64,000 bases of DNA from Tribonema minus (lineage: Eukaryota; Sar; Xanthophyceae; Tribonematales; Tribonemataceae): the NCBI GenBank assembly GCA_017506865.1, contig JAFCMP010000079.1, positions 806,001-870,000 of the forward strand, written 5' to 3'. The position numbers and the translations under genes were made by a program. The notes beneath the pieces are model-generated. The model ran no database searches. It was not told the origin of the DNA and saw only the letters and a list, made by a program, of their open reading frames with translations. Position 1 is the stretch's first letter. Every line of letters begins with the position of its first letter. This document shows positions 821 to 52,021 of the stretch, one piece after another.

Positions 821-3800
821 TTCACGGAGACGTGCGTGTCGTTCTTTGTCAGCCTGGGCGCGTCGCTGCTGGATCTGATCGCCTTCAGCGCCATCCTCTT
901 CTCCATACACCCGCCGCTCTTCCTCACGGTGAGAGAGTGCGCTTGGTTGAGCGCTGCTGCCACTGAGCGCTGCTGCTGCGCTCTGCCCTGCACTGTCAGC
1001 CCGGCATGACGCGCCATCGTGTTCTCCATACACCCGCCACTCTTCCTCACGGTGAGCGCGCGCGCTCGTGCGCGGTGTGGCTGTGCGCTGCTGCTGCTGC
1101 TGAGCGCTGCTGCTGTGCATTCTGCCCTGCGCCGTCTGCGCGGCACGGCGCAGCCGGGAGCAGGTTCGCTGATGTGCACCGCGTTAGGGGGTACTTCCGG
1201 CGAGAGGCCGTCGCTGTTGGCGACCCACTTGTGGCATATGATTGTTGTCAATCTTTGGACTGTTTTGCCGAGGAGCAACAGTCAGCCCTAGCTATAGGGC
1301 TTGGTCCCCCTGCTCAGGGCTGAAGCACCCGTCTCAACGCCACTTTCAACTCTCCACGGTATTCCTGCACACTGAAAGCATTTGCCAACAATGTCACTTG
1401 GTGGCGGTCACACATCTCGGCGCCCGCAGCAGGCACAGCCACTGCCAGGGTTAGGGATGAGATCAGGGTTGCCAACCTCTAAGGGTTAGGGTCAAGAAGC
1501 CCTGACCTAAGTGCCGGTACTACAAGCCTTTGTCCTTGAGTCGCACCCCGCATCAAGCGTGATAACGCCTTCTACTGCATAAGTTGCCTTCCACCTCGTA
1601 GGCCGCGGATCCTGCATGCTATGGCACGTGATTGTCCGCACCGTCACCCCGCCCGTTTCGTGCCGCCGCCACTCCATGAAGGCATTCCAATCGAATGGCA
1701 CGTCTGCTAACACGCACGAGCAATACCGACGCACTACTGACACTGCGGTCCCCTCTTTGCCGCCGTGTGCATAGAGTGCTTGACAGCGCTCAGCTCGATT
1801 ACGTTCCGGTGTGACAAACTTCGCGTCCGCATCATGACCACCTCACTCTCATGGCGCAGGCGCTGGCAGGCAGCTTTGCCACTGGCGTCTTCACGATACG
1901 CACCGGGATCAGATCATGCTGCTGGGGGCATCAGCGCCCATGTAGGCTAGGGTCAGGGTCAGGGTCAGGGTTACATAAGGCCAGACTTGCGTGTTGCGAA
2001 TGTAACGGTAGACATATTCGCAGGTGCCGCGCCGCACAGTCCCTTACGCCCCCATCATGTCACCGTCACACTGGTCAGGGTTGCATAGTGCCGGACTTGC
2101 GCGTCGCCAATGTAACGATAACCATCTCTGCGGGTGTCGCACTGCCTCACGACCTCTCCCGTCCCCACCGTGTCACCCTCGCGCACGCTGCGGTCACAGG
2201 TGCTGGCGTACAGCACCGCGGGCACATGCATCGCGCTCGCGCTCGGCCACCGCCTTGTGGGCCTCAACATGGGGCAGATCCGCAGGGAGGCCGACTTCCG
2301 CTACTCGCTCGTGCGCGTGAGGTGAGCGCTGCCGCCTCGCCTTTCCACCCTCGGCAGGGGTAGGTAGGTATGAGTGTAATGTGTACGTACATACCCCGCC
2401 CGTGCGCGTGTCAGGCGAGCGCTGCCGCAGGCGAGCGTCGCCGCCGCGCCTTCGTTCCAGCACATTTTGCCTGCTGTACAACCAGCTGAGGATAGTGAAC
2501 TAAGGGCGTATGCACCTGAACTGCCTGCGCCGGGGCGGACACCTGCATCGTCATTCAGGGCTTGTTCAGCAGCAAGATTTTAGTACCACAATGCAGTGTG
2601 CACGTGCGCAGACATGCCCCCCCTCCCCCTCACCGGGTGGGCACGTACCGGTCCGTCAGGGCCTGGCTAGGGTTGAGTGAGGCTTCGCGCCGTGATGAGG
2701 GCTACTGGTGTCGTGACGATGGTTCGGGTAATGAGATTTGGGGGTCGGGCTGCAAGCTTGGTGCCATTGACCGCTCTGCGCAGTCGCTATCTATCGTCTC
2801 GCAAAGCAGGCCATGGAGAAATGATTACGCAATGGGCAGAACCACGCGCCCCACACCGAACAGCGCTGTGCAACGGCACATGGTTGTATGTAGTTGGGTG
2901 GGGAAGTCTTGGGTGCTGTCTCGTCCTGCCCTAATGCGAACCCTGAACCTTACCTTGGGGCTTGCGTGCGTGTCATCAAGTGCAGAGTGGGGCCGAGGTT
3001 GTGGCACTTGCGCACTGCCGAAGCCTCACTGCTTCGTGGTTCATGCTGCAAAGACATTGCCCTGTGGCAGTGAGCGCGCTGGGCATTGGCTCGTACACCT
3101 GGCTGAGCACTGCTTCACATCCTGGTTCCATGCTTTTGCAGTGCATTCATCTTGAAATTCGGTGACCCATCGGCAGCGCCCGTCCTCCAGTCAAAGCTCA
3201 ACAGCACACTGTACATGAATGCACATAATCTGAGAAGAGCCGCTGCAGCCGCCACCGCCTACGCCACGAGAACATAACGCAGCTTCCCTCAATTCAAGGT
3301 GGCGGCGTCGCCGTCTCCTTAAATAATGCTTTTAATAAAATGTCATCCGAGAAGAGACGCTGCTGCCGCCGCCGCCTACGCCAGAAAAGCACAACGCAAC
3401 ATTCCTCATGTCAGCAGCGGCGGCGCCGCCACAGCAACAAAGCGCAGCACTCAAACGCACCGCTGCCGCCACCGCCGCCGCCGCCGCAGAGAAAACGCCG
3501 AGGCCATAGCGTTCTACGGCGGCGAGCGCGCTGAGCGCCGCCTCATATCGCGCCACCTGGACAGCGCTCTGGAGAACACGCGTCGACTCATCGCCACCGA
3601 GAGGAATCTTGGCTTTTTCACTGCGGGCTACGAGCTGCTTGTCGAGGTGCGGAGGCTCGCGTAATGAGTATCAACACCCATGCCTTGAACGCTGAAAGCT
3701 TGCACACAGAGGTCTTTTTGACTACTGTGGATGTGGTGACGCTGTTTGACTCGCGGCCAATGACTGCTGCCGCTGCTGCAGTCATTGGCCACGAGTCCAA

Positions 3801-6800
3801 CCACTGCTTGTCACCTAGACAAGCCCTACGATATTTTGATTTGTTTCTATGAAGAGTACACTTTTGGCGACGTCGTTTAGATGTGGTTGTAATTGAAAGT
3901 CTAAACACTTTCAGTTTGTCGCATGACGTGTAGGTTCTCTACTGTAAGCTTTGATATCGATCGTCTGGGCTTGTTTGCGCCCTCAGCGAGAATTGATAAA
4001 AAGTAAGCATGCTTCACGGATGTGGTGTGTACTGACAGATGTCTCCGTGCATGCCGTGCACTTGCGGCCGCGTGCGCTGTGGTAACGCGCGTTTGCTGCA
4101 TGGGCACACGTCCTCTCGCAGAGCGTGTGGCCGGATGATTGCTCGCTTTGCACACGGGTTTCTGGGCCTCACCCCTTTGAGGTAGCGGAGTCGGGGGTAA
4201 GGTTAGGGTTGGTGTGTAATGGGGGTAGGGCGTACAGCCGATGGCGCGCCATGCAAGCCACGGTGCTTGAACACACACAAAGTGCCTTTGGGAGCTTCTT
4301 AAGGCTACATCCCGCCCTGAACCCCCCCCCCCCCGCAGCTGAGTGCCGCAGCAGCACCGCAGTGCTCAGCACATTTGACAGGGCGCCAAGGCGCACTGAT
4401 GGAGCGGCAGCAGTGCTCGTTTGCACCTCAACATGCCGTCACATATGACAACGACGTTGCCCTGGGTCAGGGTCGGGGATCAGCTGTACATCCAGTCAAC
4501 GAGGGACGCGGTGGCGCTCTGGCTGAAGTTGAAGTTGCATGAGGCAGCCCGCACTAGCCAGCAACTGGTCGCGCAGTATCGCTTCTATGCAACAGCTGCC
4601 TCAGTGCAACTTCAACTCCAGTCTCAGCTCCGAGCCAGGTCGGACCTCTCAGAGGGCAAGCTTTGAACATGCGCCGGCGCCTGCACTGTTAAGCATCGCT
4701 GTAGCAAGATCATCCGCTGACTCGGCATCTTCTTGGACAGCGTGAGTGCTGAGACCAAGCACTATGGGCGTCGGTGCCACGTGCGCGCTGCTCTGTCCTC
4801 AGTGGTGACATAAACATAACCCTAAGCCGTGCCTCATGCCACACCTCACGCCGTCCTCACTCACAGCGCGCCCATCTGTCAGTTTCGAAAACCCGCCAAA
4901 TATGGTGGCATGCGCCATGCCGTGGCTAGATGCTCATTAATGCCTGAACGCAGGGCACGCGCTCCTCCACCGCTGGCTCCGCTCTGCCGCCGCGCACAAT
5001 GTTGCCGCTATGCATTGCCGCCATTGCCTAAGCTGCGCCGCACGCCCAGCTGCTCATCAGCGCCTTACACAGTTGTGCCTGGCACGCCCCTCTACATACC
5101 CCGTCCAGGGGCCAATAAGGGGAAGGGGAGGAGCCCGGGGGACAACTTGCACAGCACTCGCGGCTCTTCGGTTGACGCGCGTCTCCGCCACCGGGGGGTT
5201 CTCTGTCGTCGCTGTTGAGCGCTGCCGCAGGCTCCGCTCCGCCGCCGCGCACAATGTTGCCGCTGAGCGTTGCTGCTATTGCCTGAGCTGCATCGCGCGC
5301 CCAGACGCTCGTCAGTGGTCTTACACGTGCTCTTCACCTGACACGCCATCGCCGCCGCCGCCCGCCGTGCTGCTGCTGAGCGCTGCCGCAGGTCCTGCCG
5401 GCCCTGCTGGTGGCGCCCGTGTACTTTGCAGGGCGCATGGGCCTCGGCCAGGTCTCGCAGGTCTTCTCCGCGTTCTCGCGCGTCCTCTACAGCACCAGCA
5501 TCATCATCGACAACCTCGGTGAGAGAGGCGCTCGGCACTGCCTGATTTCAATGCTCACCGTACTATCAACAGAGTATTTGTAACAGGTTTCGAGGAGCGT
5601 ACATGTGCACCAGCATCATCATCGACAACTTCGGTGAGAGGGGCCCATAACTGCCTGACTTCAATGCCCACCGTATTATCAATAGAGTATTTGTAACAGA
5701 TTTCGAGGAGCGTACAGTGTAATGTGTACCTCTACATACGAGTGGTGCATGACGATGCGGTGCCGATGCGAGCTGCCGCGCGCTGAGCGCTGCCCTTTGC
5801 GCGTGCCCCTCTGGCGCCAGCGTCACCCGTGCGTGGCAAATTATTGTTTGCATTTTTGCAGCATCGTCGCAGTCGATGGTATTGCGCATGCCGCACGGCG
5901 CCAGCAGGGTTAGATAGCATGAGCTCCAGTTGAAGCACACCGCAGCCGCAGCGATGTGTCTACTGCAGCGCTACTTGGCAGATCGTGAGGAACGATGATG
6001 AATGAGGTCTAGCCCCAAACCTCGAACGTGTCAAGGAGCAATTACAGTGCTGCTAGACCCGCTCCCCCCCATGGGCTCCCGTCCCCCCCGTGCGGCCTTC
6101 ATGCCAGTGTAACGAATCAGGGTGTGGGGGCACCGGCATGGTGTGTGGACATGTGTTTCTTGTGTATTTGTTGCGTGTCGGCATTGTGGTTTGCCATTTC
6201 GTGACACACAGAGGATGAGTTCACTGGCACTGACCCTGGAGACGCGTTGGCAGGCGCCTACGGCGGCGTCATGCTTTGTTTTCCGGCAGCGTACAGAAGA
6301 GCTGAGTTCAGGCGGATCAACACTGTCAGGCCCCGGGCCCAGGTTGAAATTTGGCACTGTGAATCAGGGATGCGATTAATGGCACCGCCTGCAGACGTGC
6401 AGGGCCAGGTAGATATGGTGCAGCTGGCGAGGGCATGCAATCGCTGATCAGAGGAATGGCATTGCTATCGGCACACGATTGTGGGTACGATGAGCGATGC
6501 AGGTGCGTGACTCATGGCGCTGGGGCGTGCGCGTGCATGTGATGTGGACCGGCTGGGCCGGCTTTTGCGCCTGCGCAGCACGCGGGCGCGCCGCCGTCAC
6601 ACGCGTCCCGAAGCCACGCCGACCGATCACCAGCGAGAAACGCCATTCGTCCCCCATGTATCTATGTGTCATGCATGTAGGCCTCAGCTGCAAACAATAC
6701 TACCGATGCTGATTGAGTCCATCCCACGTACTTGAGTGCTCGCATTGCTGACACCTAGCGCATTCCAAAGCCGCACAAACCAATCACCATTGCGGAAGCC

Positions 6801-9800
6801 GTTCGTCCCGAGACTGCAGGCCTCAGCTGCAGACTGTACCAGTACTGACTGAGCCCATCCCATCGGCTTATATGCTCGCATTGCTGGCATTGAGGTCTGA
6901 GTAAACCTGACTCGCTACTTTCTGCAGAGGAGCTCAGTCAGCTCGGCGCGGGCGCGGAGCGCATCGGCGCGCTCATGGCGCTGCTGCGTGCGCGCGAGGA
7001 CGAGGCCGCCGCCGCCGAGCATCCGCCGCATCAGCAGCAGCAGCAGCAGCAGCAGCAGCGCGCCTTATGGCCGGAGCGCGGCGACGGGCACGTCTTGCAG
7101 CACGCGCTCGCCGCCGCCAAGAAGCAGCACGTGAGTGGCTACGTTGTCATGAGGCGTGATGATGGAGACTGGGCGCGACCTCTTTCCGCACTGTGTTCTG
7201 CCGTCGTGTGCGCCTGGGTGGCTGCTCTTGGTGGCCGCGCCTGAGACGCGATGCGTGCGCGTGACGCAGAGACGGCGACTCAGAGAGTTCAAACAAGAGA
7301 GCTTGAACAAGAAGGTGGCGCAGGGGCTGAGCGTTGAGGGCGGCACACATAAACGCCTCGTAGTACATGCATATCTCGCGGCATTGTACATGTCATTGCA
7401 GCTGCACATCTGCGCGCAGCACGGTGCGCTGACTCAAACTCTGACTCATCTGTGTAAGGCCAAGCGCTGATGCGGTGTCGTCCGCTCGTCACGTGCCTCC
7501 GCCCACGGCGGCATCACTCGTAGGCTTGCGCACGGCAGGCGCTGATGATGATGCGATGATGTCAGCGCACTGTGCAAGCGCGCAGCAGCGCGCTCACGCT
7601 GACGGCGGCCATAAGAGCGCACGCGCCACTTGGGCGAGCAAGCGAGCGCGCGTGCTGGGACGGAAAAGCCAGCGCGACAGCGCGCAGCCTCGTACGACCG
7701 TTGTGCGGCCTCGCTTGCTGCATAGGTGGCATGGTACGTAGGTTGCGGGCAGGGACGTAGATGAGTAGTAGGCGGTGGGCAGCGCGCAGGGGGCGAGGAG
7801 CTGGCGCCAGCGCGTATTGGTGCAGCTGCTGAATGAGCGTGGTGCTGCAGGCGGCGACTGCAGTGGGCGCCTTCTGCATAAGGCACCGCGCACATGTGTG
7901 GCTGCCGCGCTTGAATGTTGAAGTTGCCAGACGCCGACCGTGCAAGTTGTGCATACCATTGGAGTTGCGCCAGCCTCGCTGCCACTTTGCTGATTGCCCG
8001 CTGTGACGCAGTCCAGGATGAAGGGCGGGACTGGTATGAGCGTTAGCCTAAGGCGTGGCAGCAGCTGTCTGTGTGCACTCGTGGCCAGGCCAAAAACTAC
8101 GCTTAGCAACACCGCAAACCATGCCACTCCCCATCATCCTCCATAGCTTGCATCACCATCAGAGAGCCAGCACCCCCTTCAGGGGGGCGGCCCGCGCCCG
8201 CGCTGGGAACGTGCCTTGCTTGATGACCCGTGCTACCGCTCACACCACAACTTCAACTCCTCGCTGCCCATCATGCACACACGCGCAGCACTGGGCCGTG
8301 CGCGCGGGCCACAAGGCCGGCGCCGTGTCGCCGCACCCGCACTACCACCACGGCGCGATCAGCGGACGTCACATCAGCAGTGTGCACGGCGCGTCCGCCG
8401 CCGTCGCGCGGCCGCCGGGCGCGCCGCCCGCCGTCGCCGCCGCGCCGCTGCGCGATGCCCTGTCGCTGCGCCGGCGCGGGAAGGTGCGGTGCACAGCGCT
8501 CAGCTGATTGCTCAAATTTGAAGTTGGGTTCATTGAAGTTGGGGTCGTCTTGCGAAGCGCGAGAAGGCGCTGGCGGGGCGACGTGGATAGGGCAGTTACG
8601 GGGCGGCAGCTGTTGCTCAGGCAGCCGCAGCGGCTGGATTTGCGTGCTGCTGCGGCGCGCTCGTGCATTGCCATGCGCGCTGAGGCAGAAGGCCGCTGCG
8701 GCAATCTGTCTGGTTGATGGTTTGCTGATTGCTCGCATTTGAAGTTGTGGGTCGTCCTGCAGAGCGCGAGAAGCGGCTGTCGGAGCGATGTGGATAGGGT
8801 AGTTACGGGGCGGCAGCTGTCGCTTCGGCAGGCGCGGCGGCTGGGTTCGTGCGCTGTCGCAGCAGGCTCATCCATTGCTATGCGGGCCAAGGCAGGCGGG
8901 CATTGTGGGGCAATTTGACGTGCGTGCCGGTTGGGTAGCTGTTGCTGCCTCGGAAAGCGTACATAATGAATTCACTCGTGTCATCACTTGTTGCCAACGC
9001 CGTGGGCTTCGCTCAAAGTGACAATGCGCTTGAGTCATCCTCCGTGCCCAACGCGCAGTAACGCTCAGCGTCAGCTCGCTACAGTACTTGTGAATCAGCC
9101 GAGTGAGCAAGGGTTGTTGCTTGCAGGCCGTGTGAGTTGAGGGGGCACGCGCCGAATGCGATATGCCTTTGGCCGCTTGCGAGCCTGTTCGACCCACACA
9201 GACAGTGCGAGCAGCGCCTTGCTCGCGACTGCCGCGTGTCACGTCTCTCTCTGCACAGCACCTCTGCAGGTTCAAATGATATGCTTCGAAGTTCGTGGTT
9301 GTATAGAAGTATGTACTTCCAGAGTTATACTCAAGCCACGAATCAAAGTACACTGCCTGTACATATCCGTGCTCTGCATGTGCTGCTGTGAAGACCCTGC
9401 CATTTCACGGCCTGATCTCACGCCCTGCACCTCACCGTGTACGTGCGCGCGCATCGTCGGGCCCGCCAGATCCACCTTGCGTACCATGGCAGCGCGCACA
9501 ACAAAAACATACATTCATGGCCGTATATGCTTTGATACCGTACCATAACCACACTTCAAAGTGTGCTGCGGAGTGTGCAACCTGCATGTGCCGCATGAAC
9601 CAGCCCTCCCAATCAAGCCCTGACTCCACATCTGTGCTCGTCATTCACGCGTGCGCACGCAACGAACGCCCGGGCGGCCGCCAGATCCACCTGGCGTACC
9701 ACGGCAGCGCGCGCAACGCGTTCGACGGCGGCTACAGGCGCGAGCTGCTGCGGCTCGACGCCGTGACGGTGGTCACGCCCGATGGCTCCAAGACGCTCAT

Positions 9801-15700: not shown

Positions 15701-16585
15701 CTTCCTACTTGATTGGAGGGCCAGGCTCTGTAGCTGCACTTGACGAGCAACGGTGTGGTTGCCTAACGGTTTATGATGAGTGAGCCGGGCACGTACAACT
15801 TTGGGGTGCCATGTGACGATGACATACAGCGTGGTTGAGCACAGTCATGTGTGCACAAAGTGTGTGTTGTCATCATTGCTCATCTGCAGAAGGCCACTAC
15901 AGGAGGCATGCGACAAACCTTGAGATGGCGTTGTGTCGCAGTCATGCAACAGTGCTCCAAAAAGAACAGCGAAGCGAACTAAAACAGATGCATCAGTGCG
16001 CTTACACAGGTTCCCAATAAGGTTTGGTACCATTAGGAGGGGGCCACTGGCCCCTGGGCCAGCAGCTTTGCTGTAAATCAGAAAATGCAGCTTTGTCAGC
16101 CTGTGTTCACCGCCCCATATGTAGCTGTGATATGGAGCACTGAATAACGCCACTGCCGACTCTCCATCAGTGGCCCTCAAAAAGTACTGCCCCCCCCCCC
16201 CCCTGCCTCCCCTCTGTCCCTTCTTCGAGTCATCGAGTCATACTCTTAGCTGTAGCTTCAGACAGTTCCCAGAGCTCTGATTCAGCGACGCCATGGAACG
16301 GGACAGAGGGGCGCTATACAAGAGCGGCAAGAGAGCAGCGCCGCCGGCACTCGCGCACACACGCAGCGAAATGGCTCATCTCAACATAAAAGCCCCCCCC
16401 CCCCCCCCCCCCCTGCGCCCAGACACACGCTGCAGAGACGCACACCGCAGCCATTAGTGACTGGGGGTTTCGCAAGGGGGGGCGGGGGGGGTGGAAGGCC
16501 CTGGATCAAAGCAGCGTACGTATGCGCACACGCGTCAGCAGCGCTCAGCAACACGCGCGGCAGCGCTCCGCGGCGCGCGCGCGCC
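12703..16585. other. Intergenic region between convergent genes
   Basis: Holds the 3' ends of the transporter (+) and ThiC (-). Open frames exist on both strands near 14.0-15.0 kb, but no pair of exons could be joined in phase and no family was recognised. A C-run lies at 16189-16203 and another at 16394-16414. GTTGAAGTTGAAGTT occurs at 13844. No confident gene is seen. Confidence 0.5.
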
Positions 16586-24429
<7,844 letters not shown>

Positions 24430-36700: not shown

Positions 36701-36894
36701 GGTTCGCGCGATTCAGCCATTGAACCGCTTCCGCCGCTTTTTCGTTTTGATACGCTTTGTAGCCGCCCCCGCTGACCTGATCTCAAAAACACAGCGCGTG
36801 AAAAAGGCGAGGCGACGTGAGCTCACGCCGCGCGCGCACGACGCTGGGAGGACGGTGTCGGAGGGCGGGGCGAGCGCTGCTGCTGCTGCACTGC

Positions 36895-39800
36895 TCAGGA
36901 GCAGCAGTTGAGCATCACCCCCTGCGACGTGGGGCAGCACTCGCCCACGAGCGCGTGCGCGGCGCACGCGGCGTTCGCGGAGCACTTGGCGCCGTTGGAG
37001 CTCGCGGCGGGCGCCTTGGCAAACGCGATGTCGTGCTTGGGGCGCGTGGCTGACCAGTCTGCAACAGCAGCAGGAGGGGGGGGGGGGGTGATGAGGTCAG
37101 TCACTCTGAAAAAGGGGGGGGGGGGGGTGATGCGGTCACTCTGCGTGCAGCAGTTTGTGTGCGGTACAGTGGGGTCGGGGGTAGAGCAGCGCGCGGTGCG
37201 ACGAGCAGCACTGCTCAGCAGCATGAGGGCGACGTTGCCAATGCCACAGATGCGTGTTATGCTCTGCTATATGGCGTCAGCGGGTGGCGCGTAGCGTAAC
37301 GCGTGGGCTGCGGTGGGGTCAGGCGTAGAGCAGCGAAGTGCGACAGGCAGCGCTGCCCAGCAGCGCGTGGGCGACGTTGCTGCTGCAGCGACGTGCCATC
37401 AGCCGCTGCCACAGTTGCGCATGGTGCTTTGCTATATGGCGTCACCGGGTGGCACATAGCTTATGGACGGTGCTGAAGCGATGTCAGCAGTGTGCAACGG
37501 GCTCCGAGCGAAATGTGAGAGTGAGGAAGATCAGGTGCACTCCCTCAGATACCAAGAGCGCACCGAGCAGCCATTCAGGCCACAGACAAATCCAAGCAAG
37601 CGACGCGCCGCACAATAAAAGTCGGACAAGTCGGCGTGCTCAACGCGTTAGCTCACGGGCACTTGAAAGAGGTTGCGCTGCCGACCGCAGGCACCCCGAA
37701 GCGTTGAAGTTCTTCGAAACGACTTGTGCGCATATGCTCCCCCACAATGAGCACAAGCCGCATAGCTCAGGCACGTGACGCGCTGCGCCTGACGCGCGGC
37801 GTAATGCAGCGCGTACGCGCGCGTGCGCTCGCGTGCTGTACTATCACACCTACAAGATGTCCTCGGTGCCGAGCGCCGCTGCTCTGTTCAGCGCCAGATA
37901 CCGCCCGCGTCGCATGCGCACGGTGCCACCTTCAGTGCTCAATGATCAGCAGACAAGCGTCATATACCATGCACCATGAAACGCAAACAGCAAGCGCAGC
38001 ACGCGGAACCGGGCAGGCAGCGCGCACTCACATAGGCCGTTGGTGAGGGAGTTGCCCGAGTCGAAGATGCGAAGCGACAGGAGGTCCGCCCACGACTGGT
38101 TGGGGTCTACAATGGCCTGGTCCATGTAGACAAAGCCCAGCCACTCCTGCGCGACGCCGTCGCCGTGCGCGAGGGCCCTCGCCTGGCAGGTCGCGAGGCA
38201 GGCAATAGTGCGCATGTGAAGTGGTGCAGGTTGTGAGGTAGGTATGTGAAAACTGCATCTGCATACTAGTGTGAGGTGAAAGTTGATGGCGTGCGCCAGG
38301 GCCCTCGCCTGGCAGGTCGCGCGACGGGCAACAGGGCGCATGTGAAGTGGTGCAAGTTGTGATGTCTGCACTACATCTGCATGCTCCGTGCAGTGCTGCT
38401 CTAAGTGACCAAATATTGGCCGTTGTTGAACAAAGTTTGCAGTGCTGGGGCAGCAAGACTTGGCCGACAAGGATTGCTGTCCAAACCCCCATCATGATCT
38501 GTCGGATCCACTCAAGGGCCTACTTCACGTAAAATCGCCTTCACTCCACAGAAAGGTCACAGTGCAACAAAAAGTTTGCTGTTACCTGGCTGGTGGCATG
38601 TGATCCACCTCCTCGACAGTACGCGCCACACCCTCACTAGGACCTGAACCAAGTCATGGCGCCCACTTGTAGTGCAACTACAGGTCGAACAAGGCAAAAA
38701 CAAGAGGCAGTACAGAAGGCAGTACAGGAGGCAGTACAGAAGGTGTACTCACCAGTACAGGGTACTCCTCCGCGACGAACGGCGGCCGCAGCAGCGCCTC
38801 CGTGATGGGCGTGAAGGGCATCATGTTGATGGCATGGATGTACTCAAACTTGTCGCCGAACCACGTGTTGCAGATGACGTCGAGGGCGCCCACGACGCCG
38901 GCCATCTGCGGCGGCGGCAGGCAGCACAGGGGGGCAAGATAGGTAGGCGTAAGCGGCACAGTTGACATACCCATGAGATGCTCTTGGTGGTAACAGTGAC
39001 GACAGTGGTGCTTGACAGAACGGTGATGTGCTCTTGGTGGCCACGATGACGACAGTGCTGGCTCGTGAACGCAAATGCGCAGCGTTGACAGAGTGCGATG
39101 CGGCCAGGTGGAGGCGCCGGCAAGAACCGCTGCTGCCGTGAGACGCTCGACAGTGCTGGCTCGCGAACGCAAATGCGCAGCGTTAACAGAGTGCGATGCG
39201 GCCAGGTGGAGGTGCCGGCAAGAATCGCTGCTGCCGTGAGATGCTCGCTTCTGCGACGGTGACAACTGCTGTCGCTTTGCTCAAGCACAGACACTGAGCA
39301 TGGGCGCAGGTGCGCTGTGAATGCGCACAACTGCTGCACATCATCATGAGCCAGGGGCAGTGGAAGGGGGGGCTGCCGGTCCAGAGCGCAACCTCACAGC
39401 GACTGCTACGAGGGTAAGTGCTGGCAGCCTTGCATGCGCAGCGCGGCGCCGCGAGCGCACCTTGTTGGACGCAAAGTTGCTGTCGTAGATGGGCGTCCCG
39501 GAGGGCATCTGCCAGTATGTGTGGCCCGCGCGCAGCTCCATCTGCGCGAGCACGCGCCCCCAGTCGCGCAGCGCGTCGTTCTTGGTCGCGACGCCGTACA
39601 GGTGGACGGCGTAGTACGCGTTGATGGCCTGAGATCGGCGAAAGGCGCGCGTGAAGGGCGGGGGGGGGGGGGGGGGGGGGGGGAGGGTGAGCGATGGCGC
39701 GGTATGTAGAGGCAGTGCTCGGCGATGAGGGGGACACCGCAATGTGGATGGCATGCGATGACTGTGTGATACAGTCATACTCAAGTGCCTCCATGTAATT

Positions 39801-42800
39801 TGACATCGCAGGCACTTTCATGCTGCTGCTCCCAGAGAAAAAAGTGCGTGCCGTGCAGCATGTCGGCATACGCTGGCGCTGCGTAAATGCGCAGCCGATG
39901 TCGCTCCCACCAATGCGCACAACCTGCTTTTGATATGTTCATTGCATAGTGCCCCCCCCCCCCCCCCCCCCCTCCCCCACACACACGAGTCCCCGCCTCA
40001 AGCATCCACGACCGTCAAGGTGCAAGCATCTGGTGCAGGTCGGGGCCAACTTGGAGTCAGCATCAGCATAGAGTCAAAGTCAGAGTCGACGCCGCGCGTC
40101 GCACCTCGCTGATGCTCTCCTGGCTCTTGCCGTTGGACTGGGGGAAGAGCCCGCTGGCCCAGCTGTGGAAGTCGTACATGTCCTTGTGGCGCGCGAAGGG
40201 GAACAGGTCGGAGTTGGTCTGCGTGTTGGCAATGTCGGCCACCAGCAGCTCCAGTTGCCTCTGCAGCGGGTGAAGGCATGAGGAAATAAGCGGCTGCCCG
40301 ATGAGGAAAACTGCTGCTGATGAATGATGAGTAGAAGAGTGGCTGCTGGTGAAGCATGGCAGGATAGCGTGACGTTCGTGAGGTTCAAAAAAGGTGGGCA
40401 TCACACGATCGATTGCGCACCGCTCTCTGACTGCAGCGCACGGTCCGGGCTCAGCCGGTTGCAGTCAGGGCATGATGGGCATCGTGTGTGTGTTTCAGCT
40501 CTGCAGCGGGACGCATGGGCTAGGCTCCCTCCAGCGTTGAATGGCCAAGGGACAGCATCGCTGGTTCAAGCCTGTCTAGCGCAATTTGCACATGCCAGCA
40601 CTCAGTACACAACGCTGAATCCCCGAATGACAGAGGACGCGCCTTGCCACCTACACCGACACGGAGGACAGTTGTCCATTGGCAATGAACGTCATGGGCG
40701 AGCATACATGACGCTGGCCAGCTTGTGGTGTTGTTGAACTATTGCGGCGGTGTTGCACGATTGCGCGCTGGCGACGCATTCGCCGTGCGATGGACAAGCT
40801 GTCAGAGATACTATCTCCGGCATTATGGGCAGTTTTGGTTGATGAGCACCTGACAAGTCACCACTCATCCTGACAAGTCACCACTCATCCACCTCAGCAC
40901 TGGCGCAACTGCTTGTCGTACCCTGAACAAGTGGGCAGGTATCTCGGTGATTGGCATAGAAATAAGTATTTTGCACATGCGCCTGTTCAGCTGCGTACCC
41001 TGTATTGCGTGTAGAAGGAGGGGTCGTACTTAATGGCGACCGCTGCGCCGTAGATGAAGTAGCCGTAGTGGAAGTGGTGGTCATTGTACCTGGGGCGCGC
41101 GACAACACAACACACAATGGGAAGTGTAGGCTCAGAGTAAGCAATGTGTGAGCAGCATCGCTGGCATCGGATGCCGGGCCTCCAAGTGATAACAGGCATA
41201 CAGGGTAGGCATAGGCATGCTGCTATCCATGAACATACCCACGGTGGATGCACTTGGTGGCAGAGCTCATGTATATGGGTCAGCACCACTTGGCGCCCTG
41301 GGATGAATGCCCCAAGAGGTCACATCGCCACAACAAGCGTATTGATGCAGACGTGTGTCGTTATCGAACAGAGCAAGCTCACCAGCCACTGCCGAAGTCC
41401 TCCATACTGTCCTAACCGTACCTAACCCTACCTTTAACCTTAACCCTAACCCTAATTGGTGCGAGCTCACCAGCCATGGTCAAAGTCCTCCACATCGTCC
41501 AAACCCTACCTAACCCTAACCTTTGCCCTACCCCTAACCCTATCCTATTGAATAGTGCGAGCTCACCAGCCGTTGCCAAAGTCCTCCATCTTGTCCTCAC
41601 CCTAACCCTTACCCTACCCCTAACCCTGAACAGTGCGAGCTCACCAGCCGTTGCCCAAGTCCTCCATTTGTCCTCACTCTGACCCAAACCCTACCCCTAA
41701 ATAGAAGCTCACCAGCCAGTGCCGAGAACCCGTACTAGCCCTAAACCTAACCCTAAATAGTGCGAGCTCGCCAGCCGTTGCCAAAGTCCACCATCTTGTC
41801 CTCACCCTAACCCTAACCCTAACCCGTCCTAGCCCTACTTCTAAACAGGGCAAGCTCACCGGCCGGTTGCCGAAGTCCTTCACATCGTCCCAACCCTACC
41901 TAACCCTAACCCTAATCCTACCCCCTAAACAGTGCGAGCTCACCAACCGTTGCCAAAGTCCTCCATCTCGTCCTAACCCTAACCCTAATCCTACCCCAAA
42001 CCCTACCACCCTAATCCTTATCCTACATAGTGCGAGCTCACCAGCCGCTGCCAAAGGAAACCACCTCATCCTTGCTCTAACCCTGACCCTAACCCTAATC
42101 CTAACTCTACCCCTAACCCTAATGCTAAAAAGCGCAAGCTCCTCAAGCTCACCAGCCGTTGCCGAAATCCTCCATCTCGTCCTCCAGGCCGCGCTTGGAC
42201 ACCACCTGCGGCACGCGCAGCAGCAGCAGCGTGCACGACGCCACTCAACACGTCAGGTAGGCAGAGTGCACATACATGCTTGTATTTGACACCCTAGCGG
42301 GTGAGCAGTTCGTCGTGTGTGGTTTGCACAAGCCACGGCAGCGCTTGTCACTTCCTAACAAGGTGGCTGCGTCGCGCAGCAGCGCCCGCCATCGGGCCAT
42401 GACCCTTTCTCTTCTTCAAATCAAAAGCGTACATGTAGACTGACGCCTCTGAACAAATGCTGAGCCCAAAAAAACACACCAAAACCTGACAAAAATAGTA
42501 CAGCCCTCAGCAGTGCTCACCCCTCCCCACGCGGTGTCGTACAGCAGCGCGTCTGGGTTCTCGCCGTCCAGCCAGGGCGCGAGGTAGGGCCCCAGCGCAT
42601 CCGCTGCCTCCTTGCTTGTCTCTTTGTCGCCCAGCTGGTCGGTGATGAGCGCTGCGGCAGAGTACAGACGGATTATACAGAGGTACACTGAGTGCAAGTT
42701 TGCAGTGTCTTCACCAGCAGCAGCGGCAGCAGCAGCAGAGGCAGCACTACCAGCACCGGCAGCAGCAGTAAGTAGCACCAGCAGCGATAGCACTAGCAGC

Positions 42801-45800
42801 AGCACCGGCGGTAATGACGTGTGCGATGACACGAACGCTGCAGACTGTCTGCACTGTCCACAATGAACTAACTGCCTGCGCAGGCAGCGCTCAGCAACCA
42901 GACTGCACCCCACCTTCACGAAGGCACAAGCAACAGGCAACGGAGATCATCCGAGCCACAGCAAAGATCAGACGCCAGCGTTGCAAAGGCCTACATGCGC
43001 CATGCGCACCTCATGGCAGCTGCTGAGCAATGCTACCTGAAAAAGAGCGAAGAGCCGCGCTTGCTGACCGATGCCGTCCATATTTGAGATAGATAGGTAC
43101 GTACCGATGCGCGCGAGCCTGCCGAGGGCCTTGCCGTAGGCGTACGGGTCCGATGCAAGGGGCCAATCATCAAAGGCAGGTATATCTTAAAGGCGGATAC
43201 ATCTATCAGATGCAGGTATATCTGTCAGAGGCAGGTATATCAGGTATATCTATTGCAGGCAGGTAGGTACGTACCAATGCGCGCGAGCCTGCCGAGCGCC
43301 TTGCCGAAGGCGTACGGGTCAGGCGCGACGGGCGGAACCGACTTGACGTCCAGCCGCGCCTGCTCTAGTATGTCCGCCGTAAGCAGTTCGTCGAGATCCG
43401 CGCCGGCCGTACTGTGCCATTCGATGCCCGGCAGCTTGTCCTGCGTCGTGGCAGCGGCGAAGTTCCGTGTTGAAGTTGCAAGTTGAAGTTGGGTGTGAGG
43501 GCGACGGGCGCAGTGCCGGTGTGCGCAAGCGTCCAAGGTGGAACAGCGGGCGCGGACGGGGATAATGCGCAGCGAGCACCACTACTTCCGCTGCCTGGCC
43601 GCCCCTTTGGGCGACTTGCCCAATGCAGTCAGCGCCGCAGCACAAGATGTGCACAATAAGAACTATCAGGAACCACCCCGAAACGTGAGGCAGTGAACAA
43701 CAGGCCATCGAGTGGAGTGGGTCACGCCAGTGCGATGCGCGCGACGGCGGCCGCATCGCTCGGCGATCGCCATGACTGCCAGGCCAGCCTCGACTGGCGT
43801 TCAGAAGCGCTTCACGCGCAGGCGTGTGCCCAGTGCGAACAGCGAGCTGCTGTTCGACAACGCAAAAGAAACTAAGTGCTTGAGAGCAAAAGCGCGTATG
43901 CCCACCTGCATCTGCCACGTCGTCCCGATGATGGGGGTCATGGCGCCCTTGATGCACTTGAACTTGCCGGCGAGCCCTTCTTCAACTTGCGGTTTGCCCG
44001 CGAAGACGTCCATGTGGTGCGGCAGCGCGAGCATGAGCAGCTGGTCCTGCGTCGCCTGCGTTACGGCACGCAGAGACGGCACCACGTCAATGCGAGATGG
44101 CATGAAGACGCGTGCGTGTCAGGTGACGCTGACGTCACACCGCTCAGCAACGGCTCTTGAGGCGTGCCACGACGTTGAGCGCACGAGCGCTCCCGAGCGT
44201 TGCGACTAGTTCTGCTGCGTGAGCTCGCGCCGGTCGACAGTTGGAGCACATAGAGGTGTACCGTACTTACATGCCTTTGTTGATGCGGCCGCTGAGCGCA
44301 AACAATGTGCGCGCTCACCCTCCTGTACAGCCCATGGGTTGAGCATCGTAAGATCAACTGCCGGCAGAGGGTTGCTGGGATTAACACAGTGCGTCGTTGC
44401 TCCAAGGGGGGGAGGGGGCTATCGAATCTGTAGCTGCTCTGTAGCTAGTGACGATGAGAAACCCGAGTGCCTCTACATGGAACGCCTGCGCTTTTCATCA
44501 CTTGCATGCATGACTGGTCACATGTTCACAGACCACTCTACAGTCCTGATCCAATAAAGTGCACGTTACCCCTTCCCGCAGACTGCAAACCACATATCGT
44601 TATGTGCCTATTTAGGCCGACCGGACCAACATTTGGAGCGTTCCGGGCAGCAATCCTAATTATGCCTGGGTGTTTTTTTGGGCATTCCCAATTAGGCCTG
44701 GTGGCACATTTTGCGTGCGTTTTTGTTATTGCCCTGGCCCGGTTGTGGGCTCGCACGGTCAAGTAAATGAACCGGAACGCCATAGCAGGCAAGCAGATGG
44801 CGACTGCCATGCTCACGAGCGTCCTGATACTGGTGCACAGACTATTTGCAGCCGCACAATGATGGCCTTCCCCCCGTTAACGACACCCGTTTCGCGTTTC
44901 GAAATCAACTTCACCGGAAGTTGAATTTTGTGCCAATACTGTTGCGAAGACACAACGCGCTCATGGATGGTCATTGTATGCTTATTTGGGGTGTTCCTGA
45001 TGCTCTGTCCTAAATAGGCCTGGTGCTTTTTTCGTGTGATCCTAAAGCAGTGTCCGAGTGCTTTATTTGACGATGCTTAATGTTGGTCCGGTCGGCCTAA
45101 TTAGGCACATGACGGTACTTCTTTGGCGCCTCCATCCAACAGCAGCAACATGCTACACCAGTGCTCAACAGCACAACACATCACCCCCGTACCTCTGGGA
45201 GTTGTTACGTTTTGTTTTTCAGGCATTATTCTACAACAAGTTTTTTCTCACCTTCGCCTTTGACGCCAGCTCCATTTCGCCCAGCGTTGCAGCAGGCGTG
45301 TCGGCCGACTGTCCCTCCACATCTGCAGCAGCAGCGCTCGGCTTCGCGCCAGCGTGCTTCTTGGCCCGTGGCGTCCAGCTCGACGTCTTCCACTGGTAGC
45401 TGCGCGGGGGGGTACGCAGGTATGATGTCAGGCCGTGGTGAGAACGACAGCGCTCAACGAGCCTGCGCCCCGTGCTCATTGCGCAGCGGCGACACGAAGC
45501 AGCAGCTCCTCTTGGCGAGCACGGCGACACGGATCAGCGCCCTTGTCTTAATCTAGCCATTGTGAGTACGATCACACAGTCGTAAGACAGCACAAGCAGT
45601 GTGCTCGGCGTGCCAATAGTTGCGCTACGTCTTTGATGAGCACCACAAACGCGGCGATAAGCAGCACCCCTATTTGTAACCGCCGCTGAGAGTGCGATCG
45701 TGGCGCAGCGCTCGCAGTGTCGGGCGTCCCGATGGTAATTGCAGCGTCCGTTTGCGTGTCGTGACGCGCCTGATGTGGAATGAGCTTCAAGTGGTGACAC

Positions 45801-48800
45801 TCCAACTATCCAACTCTGAAAGCTTGAGCAAAGATCAAGCTGCTGCAGTCCGTGTCGGCAGGGGCAGCCGTATATTCTCTGCACAGAGTGCGGATGTCTG
45901 AGGTTGGTGGGGGCGTGCAGCAGCTGTGGCGTGCGCTGTGCAGAGGGGCCTCGAAATATCCATCCGCTGCGGAGGCAAGGCGTTCAAAATTGGACGCAGC
46001 TCTAGCCGGGGATCGAATCGTGGGAGAACTAGGGAAAGGACGCCAGCATCCTGCGGCGGCTCGTGTGTGAACGAGAGGCGCCCAACGCGGGTGGCGGACG
46101 AGGCGCAGCAGGAGCGCACAGTCCACGCGGCGCGAGCCGGGGTGCTGGCAGGGAGCGGCGAGCTGACGCGCTGGGTGCCGCTGGCGTGGCGCTTCACAGT
46201 CGTCGGTGCGGCAGGCGGCAACTACTTTCTGCGCTGGATACAGATCCAGGGGGGTTAGCGGGCTCCTGAATACTGCGTAGATGCCTCCTTCATCTCGTGT
46301 CTGGCACGGAAAGGGGGGGGGGTGGGAGAAATGGGACTGGCTCAACCGCATGAAAGACGGCAAGCCCCAGGTCGGCCTCTACGGCGTAGACAGCTGCCGG
46401 AAAGGGGGCTCCGCGGCGGTGGCGGAGCATCTCAAGGAGCGCCTCGGCCTGACCTTTGAGGTCCTCCACGAGCTGACCGGCGCGCAGGTGTCGGGAGACG
46501 AGTGGCAGCAGCTGGTGCGGCGGCGCATGGCGGCCTGCGAGCTGCCGTTCACGTCCAACCAGCAGCGTTACTTCTGGCAGATGGAGGGGGGGGGGCGGAC
46601 CGCTGCTGGAGAAACCAACGCGCGACCCCCTGCTGCTGGTGCTGCTGGCGTTCGGCGTCGTCGCGGCGCGTCCGCAGGCCGACGCACTCTGCTGGCTGGA
46701 CGTGAAACGGCAGCTCGCAGGCCACCATGCGCCTCCGCACCGGCTGCTGCCACTCGTCTGCCGACACCTGCGTGCAGGTCAGCTCGGGGGGGACCACGTC
46801 AGGCCGAGGCGCTCCTTGAGATGCTCCGCCACCGCCGTAGAGCCCCCTTTCCGGCAGCTGTCTGCGCCGTAGAGGCCGGCCTGGGGCTTGCCGTCTTTAA
46901 TGCGGTTGAGCGGGTCCCATTTCCCCCACCCGCCCCCCTTTCCGCGCCAGACACGAGATGAAGGAGGCATCTACGCAGTATGAAGGAGCGCGGTAGCCCC
47001 CCTGGATCTGTACCCAGCGGAGGAACAGCCTGCCGCTGGGCGCCCTCACGAGCAAGAATCGCCGTGCGCCCCAGCCCCCCCCGCTTCTGTGCAAGGCACC
47101 GTATAAACGAGGCATCTACGCAGTATGGAGGAGCCGTGCACACATCCAGCACAGTCGTGGTACAGCACAAGCAGTGTGCTCGGCGTGCCAATAGTTGCGC
47201 TACGTCCGTGGTGAGCACGTCGGCACGACGATATGAAGCAGCGCCTCTGTCTGTTACCGCCGCTGAGAGTGTGATCGTGGCACAATGCTCGCAGTGCCAG
47301 GCGTCGCGATGGTCATCGCAGCGTCCGTTTGCGCGCCGTGACGCGCCTGACGTGGAATGAACTTCAACTGGTGACACTTCAGCTCGAGGCAGCAGAATTG
47401 TCTACCAGCCATTCGTTTGAGCTCCCAACCCTTTGTGAACCATATCTTCTGTGAAACGACCACGCCGGTGATACCAACTTAATCCAACAACTCATCAAGC
47501 CAGCGGTGCATGTGCGCACAATGAGCCTAACACTATCCCCAGCCGTTGCCGTAAAGCTGTCCCCTTTTGTGTAAGATCAATAAAGCCCCCCAGCTGATAC
47601 AAGCAGCCCTCTAAATCAGCAGTACATGTGTGCACAAGGCCGCAATGCAGTTGTACTTGTGATATGATGCTAATTGCTGGCGCCGAGTGCATGACATTGT
47701 GATGCTTTTTACTCACATCAAGTGCATGCACAGTGTCATGCTATCTTCACGTCAAGGTCGCGCGCGCCGAGTGCACGACATTACGATGCTGTCGACTCAC
47801 GCCAACTGCATGACATTGTCACTTCAACATGTACGCTAGAAGTACTTCATTTACTCACCTCAAGTGCCTGGTGTCAACCTCAACGCTCTGACTCACTCAC
47901 GCCAACTGCGTGACACGGCGATGCTGTTCACATGCGCCAGCTGCATGACGCGTTCACTTCGATCATTACACTAGAAGCAGTACACTAGAAGAACTTCAAT
48001 CACCAACCTCAAGAGCATGGTGTCGTCCTCAACGCTCCACGCCACGTCGCCGCCGGTGGGGTACACGTGCGCGTACTGTGCGAGCAGCGCCTCGTCCTGG
48101 TGCCATCAACGCGGCAGCGGCAGGGTGAAATGAGAGGGCAATGGCGCAGAAGGATGTTTGTAGTGTTGGTCATGGTGATGCTGCAGGGTGATGCTCAGCG
48201 GTTGCCCGAGGCATGTATGCCCTGAAGCGCGAGCAGCGCCTCATCCTGGGCAGCGCGTCAACAGAAAGCAGCGAGGTCAAATGAGACGGCCATGATGCGG
48301 AAGTGTGTTTACCTTTGGGTGCAGCAGCACCGCCGCACGCAGCACGCCATTGAATGCCTCCCGACGCCATCGCCAGATATAGTTCCACAGAAGTATATAG
48401 TCAAGTACAAGTATAAGTCAAGATCGGCGTCGTCATGGCCGGCGTCGGCGCTGACGCTGAGCACTGCGTACCTTTGGATGCAGCAGCACTGCCGCGCGCA
48501 GCACGCCCGTGAACGGCGCCGTCATGGCGAGCTGCATGTTGTTGTACTCGTACGTGACCTCCTCGCTGGTGAACAGCAGCCACGTCTGGCCGCTGCTGAG
48601 CTCCAGCTTGAGCTGCGTGCCGGTGGCGGAGTCTGTGCGCCAGTTCACCGGCGCCTGCAAACACATACACATACATACGCAGCGGCGATGGGACGGGGGA
48701 GGGGGCAACGAGGCCTGTCAGCTCTGTGTGGGCTGAGGCCAGGAGACTGCGTGTTGTCGCCGTGAGAATGGGACTCTTCATACGAGACGAGTTGCTGAGC

Positions 48801-51800: not shown

Positions 51801-52021
51801 AGTATCGAAGGCTGCGATGGGAACCCGCAGCACATCTCCTGTTTCTGCTCGTCATGCGAAGGCCCCTTGGGCACGATCACAAATAACGCAGCGGCCACAT
51901 CAGCAAGCATCACTGCTGCCGAGTTGTCATTCACTCACCTGTTCTCCACAGCAGGATCGATAACGCTCACAGCAACGCGCTCCAACGCGCCGTACTCGCA
52001 AGTCTCAGCCTGATAGGCCAT
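36895..52021 (-). CDS. GH81 endo-1,3-beta-glucanase, membrane-anchored
   Basis: Inverting hydrolase of beta-1,3-glucan. Seventeen exons in coding order: 51939-52021, 51575-51702, 49836-50090, 49127-49332, 48472-48654, 48008-48096, 45252-45399, 43906-44046, 43275-43440, 42521-42651, 42153-42205, 40999-41089, 40105-40260, 39461-39628, 38753-38905, 38032-38182, 36895-37058. The sum is 2466 nt, 821 aa, and all phases agree. About 30 N-terminal residues and a basic SRRKR stretch precede one transmembrane segment ([20 protein letters not shown]), so a type II anchor with the enzyme outside is inferred. GH81 marks: [37 protein letters not shown] (about 528-539), [27 protein letters not shown] (catalytic Glu region, about 602-610) and [13 protein letters not shown]. 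The tail [24 protein letters not shown] is Cys-rich. Introns carry numerous splice-junction copies and two insertions. Confidence 0.95.
38163..38365 (-). repeat. Copy of GH81 exon 16 acceptor and exon start
   Basis: The acceptor region and exon start (AGGGCCCTCGCCTGGCAGGT and GTGCGCATGTGAAGTGGTGC, plus strand) at 38170-38230 recur almost unchanged at 38300-38355. The copy lies upstream in the intron. Period is about 125 bp. Confidence 0.92.
38985..39250 (-). repeat. Intron 14 tandem duplications
   Basis: CTGGCTCG(T/C)GAACGCAAATG begins at 39058 and again at 39156 (period 98 bp), with near-identical following sequence. An older pair, TGCTCTTGGTGG, is at 38980 and 39030. A short GGCAGTACAG(A/G)A micro-repeat lies at 38704-38745, just inside exon 15's donor. 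Confidence 0.85.
41371..42205 (-). repeat. Nine GH81 exon 11 donor copies with TTAGGG tracts
   Basis: The real exon 11 end ([11 protein letters not shown] split after TG, then GTGAGC; 42153) is followed in intron 11 by copies at about 42029-42072, 41932-41976, 41849-41890, 41759-41802, 41704-41740, 41634-41672, 41557-41596, 41459-41502 and 41371-41412. Each has CGAGCTCACCAGCC(G/A) on the plus strand followed by a TTGCC(A/G)AAGTCCTCCA-like block. Between copies lie CCCTAACCCTAA tracts, TTAGGG on the sense strand. Unit is about 75-100 bp. Most copies keep the GT of the donor. Confidence 0.95.
43100..43320 (-). repeat. Near-intact copy of GH81 exon 9 end with donor
   Basis: The exon 9 end ([15 protein letters not shown], junction at 43275) recurs at 43105-43150 with only about three base differences in 46, and with the same GTACGTAC donor. 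The sequence between them contains GCAGGTATATC repeats. The copy is 170 nt inside the intron. Confidence 0.95.
44602..45110. mobile_element. MITE-like element with 32-bp TIRs in GH81 intron 7
   Basis: The terminal inverted repeats at 44602-44633 and 45079-45110 match at 31 of 32 positions. They begin ATGTGCCTA and contain GGCCGACCGGACCAACATT. The element is 509 bp and has no coding capacity. Subterminal TAGGCCTGGTG occurs twice inside. No clear target-site duplication is seen. It is non-autonomous, superfamily undetermined. Confidence 0.85.
45577..47382. mobile_element. Compound element: direct repeats around a long palindrome
   Basis: Direct repeats of about 225 bp (45577-45801 and 47151-47382) share CAAGCAGTGTGCTCGGCGTG, AATAGTTGCGCTACGTC and ACCGCCGCTGAGAGTG. 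They flank an inverted repeat with arms 46231-46565 and 46688-47020. Both arms encode the same protein-like frame, [18 protein letters not shown] and [17 protein letters not shown] (+ on the left arm, - on the right). The family is not recognised. The element sits in GH81 intron 6 and looks like a fold-back or rearranged transposon. Confidence 0.75.
48055..48355 (-). repeat. Copies of GH81 exon 6 acceptor and exon 5 donor
   Basis: In the intron between exons 5 and 6, the start of exon 6 (GCGAGCAGCGCCTCGTCCTGG, plus strand, 48080-48100) is copied at about 48229-48250. The end of exon 5 (GTACCTTTGGATGCAGCAGC) is copied at about 48306-48345 as TTACCTTTGGGTGCAGCAGC. Both junctions of this one intron have therefore been duplicated inward. 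Confidence 0.88.

What the first reader, a model, noticed from the sequence alone, without database searches (positions are those of the whole stretch)
821..52021. Genome-wide-looking rule: exon-intron junctions are tandemly duplicated into introns
The same architecture occurs in four unrelated genes: transporter (1015, 5608, 9466), ThiC exon 3 (both sides), fusion gene exon 4 (28650), and GH81 exons 5, 6, 9, 11 and 16. Exonic parts of copies are diverged, while the real exon keeps family conservation and phase. The chosen splice sites are always the outermost, so introns lengthen by absorbing junction copies. This would be a mechanism of intron growth, possibly also giving redundant splice sites. 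Intron gain by tandem duplication is a known idea; serial junction amplification as a habit of one genome is not something I know to be described.
Basis: partly seen in the sequence, partly recalled or inferred. Interest (0 to 1): 0.92.

Follow-up and report, generated by a model that had tools for sequence, protein, structure and literature searches.

The report
Splice-junction copies inside algal introns
In the yellow-green alga Tribonema minus, introns seem to have grown by repeated short tandem duplications, and because many of these straddle the edge of an exon, the introns carry decayed copies of real splice junctions that the known proteins and transcript skip.

Summary
The window is Tribonema minus (Xanthophyceae). 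Annotated proteins (ThiC, ABC) or a closely similar transcript (GH81) fix the splice sites; diverged junction copies lie in the adjacent introns at all named places but one (9466, inconclusive). The real sites are outermost.

It extends beyond the window: four other Pfam-supported genes, three of seven fetched chaperonin (PF00118) genes, two kinesin places.

A junction rule is not supported. In 96 introns, coverage by local direct duplications is flat: donor exon edge 19/96, intron edge 17/96, 150-200 nt inside 19/93; acceptor 15/96, 15/96, 20/93. Intron-only duplications decay alike. I read it as pervasive local tandem duplication (110 direct vs 3 inverted hits; 50 of 64 periods 80-199 nt), junction copies being by-products.

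Open: 29 of 50 loci touch a junction against 17.1 expected (z 4.0), though 5 of 12 vs 4.1 in the unselected set; load differs between genes (11 of 15 introns in three chaperonin genes, 0 of 15 in four). A single boundary-crossing case is in print; my searches listed no genome-wide one.

The parts
821..928 (+). ABC transporter exon (real); donor after 928
   Evidence: spliced alignment to annotated T. minus protein P0172
1011..1051 (+). copy of the end of exon 821-928, followed by GTGAGC
   Evidence: 38/41 identical; E 4e-27 with intron part; read
5392..5518 (+). ABC transporter exon (real)
5607..5633 (+). copy of the end of exon 5392-5518 plus donor; intron part 74/85 identical
9442..9502 (+). 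possible copy of the start of exon 9685-9812 (exon ab initio only, absent from annotated protein)
   Evidence: inconclusive
21249..21659 (-). ThiC exon 3 (real)
   Evidence: annotated protein P0001 skips all copies
20707..21154 (-). four tandem copies of the ThiC exon 3 end + donor (exon parts end at about 21116, 20995, 20846, 20707)
21781..22195 (-). three tandem copies of acceptor + ThiC exon 3 start (copies start at 21827, 21999, 22195)
28802..29023 (-). exon of the zeta-toxin-like kinase/glutaredoxin fusion gene (ab initio exon, Pfam-supported protein)
28651..28692 (-). copy of the end of that exon; its donor reads GG instead of GT
   Evidence: 40/42 identical
48472..48654 (-). GH81 exon 5 (real)
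   Evidence: transcript P0121
48313..48354 (-). copy of GH81 exon 5 end + donor
   Evidence: 37/42 identical
48229..48310 (-). copy of acceptor + GH81 exon 6 start (exon part 48245-48229; real exon 6 starts at 48096)
47859..47888 (-). copy of GH81 exon 6 end + donor (real donor at 48008)
   Evidence: 26/30 identical
43105..43163 (-). copy of GH81 exon 9 end (real donor at 43275) + GTACGTAC donor
   Evidence: 51/59 identical
41362..42184 (-). array in GH81 intron 11: six further copies of exon 11 end + donor (real donor at 42153) in telomere-like CCCTAA-rich repeats
38290..38365 (-). copy of acceptor + GH81 exon 16 start (real exon starts at 38182)
   Evidence: 18/19 exon, 50/57 intron identical
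39050..39247 (-). purely intronic 98-nt tandem duplication, 95% identical, in GH81 intron 14 (same process away from a junction)

Best explanation
The Tribonema minus genome accumulates short local tandem duplications: same orientation, mostly 80-199 nt per unit, often repeated or nested. In introns and across exon edges they stay. When a unit starts or ends inside an exon, one copy of the junction stays as the real one and the other lands in the intron. The protein is unchanged as long as splicing keeps using the outermost site, so the intron grows by one unit and carries a junction copy that then decays. Repetition gives arrays (up to seven copies counted at one donor). SHOWN: copies, orientation, period, non-use of copies in the known proteins and transcript, level coverage across junctions, like behaviour of intron-only duplications. 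INFERRED: that duplications inside exons are purged by selection, that the copies are neutral, and the DNA-level event (slippage, unequal exchange or repair of staggered breaks; not resolved).
For: Local direct duplications occur in 16 of 20 other places: 41 clusters in 200 kb, 23 in the 64-kb window; period 80-199 in 50 of 64 clusters, 60-219 in 55; inverted pairs within 1 kb were 1 and 2. In 96 introns 110 direct against 3 inverted hits. 29 of 64 clusters are head to tail. Coverage (pairs with at least one copy 70% intronic) is flat across junctions and falls to 2/90 and 1/93 at 75-90 nt into exons. Mean core identity is 0.84 in 25 intron-only pairs and 0.905 in 57 junction pairs: divergence 1.7 times larger, near the 1.6-2 I expect if only one member of a junction pair is free to change. 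Donor GT kept in 29/35 copies, near the neutral 81%; copies of one array are not independent. Annotated ThiC and ABC proteins and a GH81 transcript skip the copies.
Against: Junction-spanning loci are 29 of 50 where uniform placement predicts 17.1, z 4.0 (window z 3.0, chaperonin set z 2.9, unselected set z 0.6). A separate simulation predicted 245 of 899 detected events (27%; 16 more unclassified) to span a junction. In 50 of 60 copies the intron part has decayed more than a simple neutral model predicts from the exon part, and in copy-copy pairs the exon-derived part is the more similar in 54 of 67; the matched intron-only control shows the same contrast, but only 4 control pairs have a core above 0.90. 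Duplication load is very uneven between genes. In the first 66 introns no exon coverage went beyond 60 nt where simulation expected half of exon parts above 65 nt; one search had one of 105 nt in a locus later dropped, and other genes showed parts of 85-140 nt.
Confidence: 0.72

Rival explanations
1. Junctions are a preferred site: a transcription- or splicing-linked process, or chromatin at exon edges, makes duplications start there, at least in some genes.
For: 29 of 50 duplication loci span a junction against 17.1 expected, z 4.0; 11 of 15 introns of three chaperonin genes do; 4 of 11 introns in the held-out 40 kb do, against 1 with intron-only duplications; serial arrays on both sides of single exons.
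Against: Flat coverage profile; no excess in the unselected set (5 of 12 vs 4.1); the window was chosen for its copies, and copies in two of the seven chaperonin genes were known before they were fetched; junction pairs stay recognisable longer (61% vs 15% detected at 0.2-0.3 divergence).
Confidence: 0.12
2. Copies are kept by selection or gene conversion as spare or decoy splice sites (redundancy), so the exon-derived part and site stay intact while intron flanks decay.
For: Exon parts average 90% identity while flanking intron parts are far more decayed; GT/AG present in 54 of 60 copies.
Against: Intron-only duplications show the same core-flank contrast (core 0.84-0.90: 0.22, n=8, vs 0.18, n=14; above 0.90: 0.29, n=4, vs 0.23, n=33); donor retention 29/35 is near neutral; acceptor 25/25 is biased because the alignment rule requires intron bases; real-copy differences by codon position are 23/19/35, only somewhat more at third positions, as expected if the real exon changes silently (20 of 60 pairs used, 27 dropped for ambiguous frame and 13 for gaps); the copy at 28651 has lost its GT.
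Confidence: 0.1
3. Mobile elements (introners or similar) inserted at junctions with long target duplications; the spacer between spaced copies is the element.
For: 35 of 64 clusters have a spacer of more than 15 nt between copies, mostly without residual similarity.
Against: Of 22 spacers of 40-200 nt searched against 264 kb, 7 matched only elsewhere in their own locus, 1 a dispersed repeat, 14 nothing. One stretch with real exon end, spacer and copy matched only itself in the whole genome. Some spacers hold nested short tandem repeats (GH81 exon 9). Only one spacer was searched genome-wide.
Confidence: 0.03
4. Assembly or gene-model artefact.
For: All exon edges outside the window come from a gene finder written here, guided by Pfam matches in the 30 chaperonin introns; it also took copies for exons.
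Against: Exon parts of copies are 74-100% identical, mean 90%, a divergence that assembly errors do not create; ThiC, GH81 and ABC junctions are fixed by deposited sequences.
Confidence: 0.03

Closest known systems
Tandem duplication across an intron-exon boundary in a potato RdRp gene (Ma, Lan, Niu 2016, PMC4974935; abstract read)
   Same: A tandem duplication crosses the boundary and copies splice signals with part of the exon.
   Different: There the duplication created a new intron, one case; here an existing intron just grows, the real sites stay at the outer edge, and it recurs in many genes, with up to seven copies at one donor.
[quoted passage not shown] Drosophila PMC2891723; passages read)
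   Same: Short tandem duplication interacting with splice sites.
   Different: Needs a duplication inside an exon and yields a new intron position; not what is seen here.
Intronic tandem repeats enriched near intron-exon junctions in 31 plants and green algae (PMC3887541; abstract and passages read)
   Same: Tandem repeats dense in green-algal introns, more toward intron ends.
   Different: The passages list mainly short motifs counted inside introns; copies of exon edges are not mentioned in what I saw.
Exon duplication / mutually exclusive exons (recalled)
   Same: Exon sequence duplicated next to the original.
   Different: Those copy whole exons with both sites and are spliced in; these are one-sided fragments that are skipped.

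Membership tests
Intronic tandem repeat (minisatellite-like) | same-orientation copies close together, head to tail | tested here: met
   110 direct vs 3 inverted hits in 96 introns; 29 of 64 clusters head to tail, 35 with a spacer
Intronic tandem repeat (minisatellite-like) | unit placed without regard to splice junctions | tested here: inconclusive
   coverage flat but loci 29 of 50 vs 17.1 expected
[quoted passage not shown]
   units span existing junctions; proteins and transcript keep the outer sites; absence of the intron in relatives was not tested
Introner elements | same intron sequence dispersed at many loci | tested here: inconclusive
   21 of 22 spacers had no dispersed match in 264 kb; one stretch is unique in the genome; the rest of the genome was not searched
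Duplicated / mutually exclusive exons | copy is a complete exon used in transcripts | tested here: not met
   copies are one-sided; ThiC and GH81 sequences skip them; minor isoforms not testable here
Habit peculiar to this genome | rate higher than in other algae | not testable with these tools
   no other eukaryotic genome is held

The most novel reading that the evidence does not exclude
Exon-intron junctions are true hotspots: in some T. minus genes a transcription- or splicing-linked process repeatedly copies the junction and its exon edge into the intron, so that splice-site arrays drive intron growth and supply spare or decoy sites.
Probability: 0.13. Interest if true: 0.88.

Novelty: new variant of a known kind. 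Interest (0 to 1): 0.57.

Why it matters
Why introns of many algae are long is open. Here a sizeable share of intron DNA is recognisable local duplication (15.9%, 9.1% and 28.2% of intron bases in three sets), and the exon edge serves as a slowly changing reference that shows events otherwise lost. The genome is also a natural experiment on splice-site choice: near-identical sites lie in tandem and, where known, the outer one is used. Gene finders can mistake the copies for exons, as mine did in ThiC and chaperonin genes, so annotations of such genomes need care.

Tried and rejected
Exon-part limit of about 60 nt, which I first read as selection against copies long enough to count as exons: rejected when other genes showed exon parts of 85-140 nt. 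A milder shortening remains (coverage halves about 50 nt into exons).

Special protection of exon-derived parts: dropped after the matched control on intron-only pairs.

Introner or element origin of spacers: no support. Green-alga origin: dropped; the ThiC match names Tribonema minus and its contig length equals C79.

Rows dropped: locus L011 (repeat-rich) and introns with an exon score under 15 or shorter than 60 nt left the strict set (36 of 72 kept); introns over 3000 nt were not counted outside the window; predicted exons under 50 nt, under score 8, or resembling a neighbouring exon were removed before introns were drawn; in the chaperonin genes exons without a Pfam match were dropped and only introns between consecutive matched exons kept (30), one of which (L036 269-1146) joins pieces that overlap in the profile and is doubtful. 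One search counted 74 of 76 introns. In the PF00176 and PF00227 tables (75 and 45 matches) I saw no clear repeated exon piece by eye. My note 5 gives 12 of 15 chaperonin introns; the recount is 11. Script errors ended.
Full report
WHAT THE WINDOW IS. The window is G000:C79:806001-870000 of a 158-Mb, 554-contig genome. The ThiC model finds an annotated protein 'ThiC family-domain-containing protein [Tribonema minus]' on a contig of 1,396,252 bases, the length of C79. T. minus is a xanthophyte, not a green alga. The genes are an ABC transporter, ThiC, a fusion gene with zeta-toxin-like kinase and glutaredoxin domains and a GH81 glucanase.

CHECKING THE OBSERVATION. Spliced alignment of P0001 (ThiC), P0172 (ABC) and P0121 (a EukProt Trinity transcript of unnamed source, 91% identical to my GH81 draft) gives the exons: ThiC 8 exons, GH81 17 exons from 52021 to 36997, ABC exons 821-928, 2200-2321, 3490-3646, 5392-5518; other ABC exons are uncertain. 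In 30 introns (26 supported that way, 4 of the fusion gene ab initio) copies that include exon edge, splice site and usually some intron were found at the donor of ThiC exon 3, ABC exon 1, GH81 exons 5, 6, 9, 11 and the fusion exon ending at 28802 (weakly ABC exon 2), and at the acceptor of ThiC exon 3 and GH81 exons 6 and 16. I read the sequences at ThiC exon 3, ABC exons 1 and 5392-5518, the fusion exon, GH81 exons 5, 9 and 16 and the acceptor of exon 6. ThiC exon 3 has four donor copies and three acceptor copies. The GH81 intron 11 array, rich in telomere-like CCCTAA, is itself an amplified exon 11 junction with six copies. The copy at 9466 rests on an ab initio exon and is inconclusive. 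Exon-edge 30-mers hit their intron in 7/74 and 6/74 cases at score 28, with 0 in all four control sets; at score 24 they do so in 9/74 and 8/74 and the controls in 3/69, 2/69, 0/73 and 3/73.

BEYOND THE WINDOW. In 200 kb from 20 other places there are 41 clusters of local direct duplications, none in 4 of the 20, against 23 in the window's 64 kb; inverted pairs within 1 kb are 1 and 2. Among 72 ab initio introns there, junction-spanning copies occur in genes whose predicted proteins match proline dehydrogenase (L018), protein kinase (L014), peptidase M1 (L002) and rRNA dimethylase (L020) models, and in others not checked. A held-out 40 kb gave 11 introns, 4 with junction copies, all in one gene without a Pfam match in its first 270 residues. 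The chaperonin family PF00118 has 56 exon matches in about 10 genes; repeated profile pieces at C51 (two), C5 and C135 betray junction copies, which the DNA confirms (these three were fetched because of that sign); seven copies were counted at one donor. Seven of the ten genes were then fetched. Of 30 introns between Pfam-matched exons, junction copies are in 11 of 15 introns of L034, L035 and L036 and 0 of 15 of L030-L033 by the rule used (two short near-misses in L030 and L031). Among 132 kinesin matches two places show an exon end repeated just downstream, read by eye from the table.

IS THE JUNCTION SPECIAL? Four tests. (1) Coverage. In 96 introns (30 window, 36 strict ab initio, 30 chaperonin) the share of positions inside a local duplication (pairs with at least one copy 70% intronic) is, on the donor side, 19/96 for the last 15 exon bases, 17/96 for the first 15 intron bases and 19/93 at 150-200 nt; on the acceptor side 15/96, 15/96 and 20/93. 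Into the exon it falls to 3/95 and 2/94 at 60-75 nt and to 0/44 and 0/61 at 150-200 nt. There is neither a peak nor a dip at the junction. (2) Placement. Of 50 duplication loci 29 span a junction; uniform placement predicts 17.1 (z 4.0): window 10 of 17 vs 4.9 (z 3.0), unselected sample 5 of 12 vs 4.1 (z 0.6), chaperonin set 14 of 21 vs 8.0 (z 2.9). The excess lies in sets picked, wholly or partly, with copies in view; simulation also shows junction pairs remain detectable longer (at divergence 0.2-0.3, 61% vs 15%). It is not fully explained. (3) Decay. In 60 junction copies exon parts average 90% identity; the intron part is recognisably homologous in 41 (z above 2.5) but more decayed than a neutral simulation predicts in 50; in copy-copy pairs the exon-derived part is the more similar in 54 of 67. 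That looked like protection of the exon part. The matched control does not bear it out: intron-only duplications show the same contrast between best core and flank (core 0.84-0.90: 0.22, n=8, vs 0.18, n=14; above 0.90: 0.29, n=4, vs 0.23, n=33). (4) Splice sites. Donor copies keep GT in 29/35, as expected at 90% identity; the 25/25 for acceptors is biased by the alignment rule.

MECHANISM. Same orientation, period 80-199 nt in 50 of 64 clusters, head-to-tail order in 29 of 64, nested shorter repeats in some spacers and a spread of divergence point to repeated local tandem duplication over time. Because the coding exon must stay intact, the surviving arrangement has the real site outermost. The molecular event is not resolved.

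LITERATURE. Boundary-crossing tandem duplication is known as a single case in potato (PMC4974935, abstract). Intron gain by tandem duplication is reviewed in PMC3443670 and discussed for Drosophila in PMC2891723 (passages). Tandem repeats are denser toward intron ends, especially in two green algae (PMC3887541, passages), and Chlamydomonas relatives have long introns without a known reason (PMC8226300, passages). Searches listed (capped lists, titles and abstract starts) no paper that I could recognise as describing serial junction copies as a genome-wide feature; the library holds open-licence papers only.

LIMITS. About 0.35 Mb of 158 Mb was read, including the window. No other alga could be compared. 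All exon edges outside the window come from my gene finder, guided by Pfam matches only in the chaperonin genes.

Noticed in passing
window:60151-60580; copies in L009, L011, L020: A dispersed repeat of about 160-260 bp, tandemly paired here and 85-98% identical in other contigs, seen by eye also in L027; probably a mobile or satellite element.
   Followed up: partly
L030-L036: Duplication load differs sharply between PF00118 chaperonin genes: 11 of 15 introns in three genes, 0 of 15 in four. No explanation.
   Followed up: partly
window:31903-26811 (-): Gene just upstream of ThiC encodes a zeta-toxin-like kinase domain fused to a glutaredoxin; exons ab initio.
   Followed up: partly
window:41362-42184: Interstitial telomere-like CCCTAA-rich DNA inside the GH81 intron 11 array.
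   Followed up: no
L003:2746-3407: A 331-bp tandem duplication 99.7% identical, the most alike of the 64 clusters, or an assembly duplicate.
   Followed up: no
window:24429-24149 (-): ThiC begins with a hydrophobic stretch then A-FVAPSG, like the bipartite plastid signals of algae with secondary red plastids (motif recalled).
   Followed up: no
window:9685-9812 (+): Likely ABC transporter exon missing from the annotated protein P0172; by eye the paralogue P0182 has a matching stretch.
   Followed up: partly
whole sample: About 7% of the 121 confident predicted donors are GC rather than GT despite a penalty.
   Followed up: no
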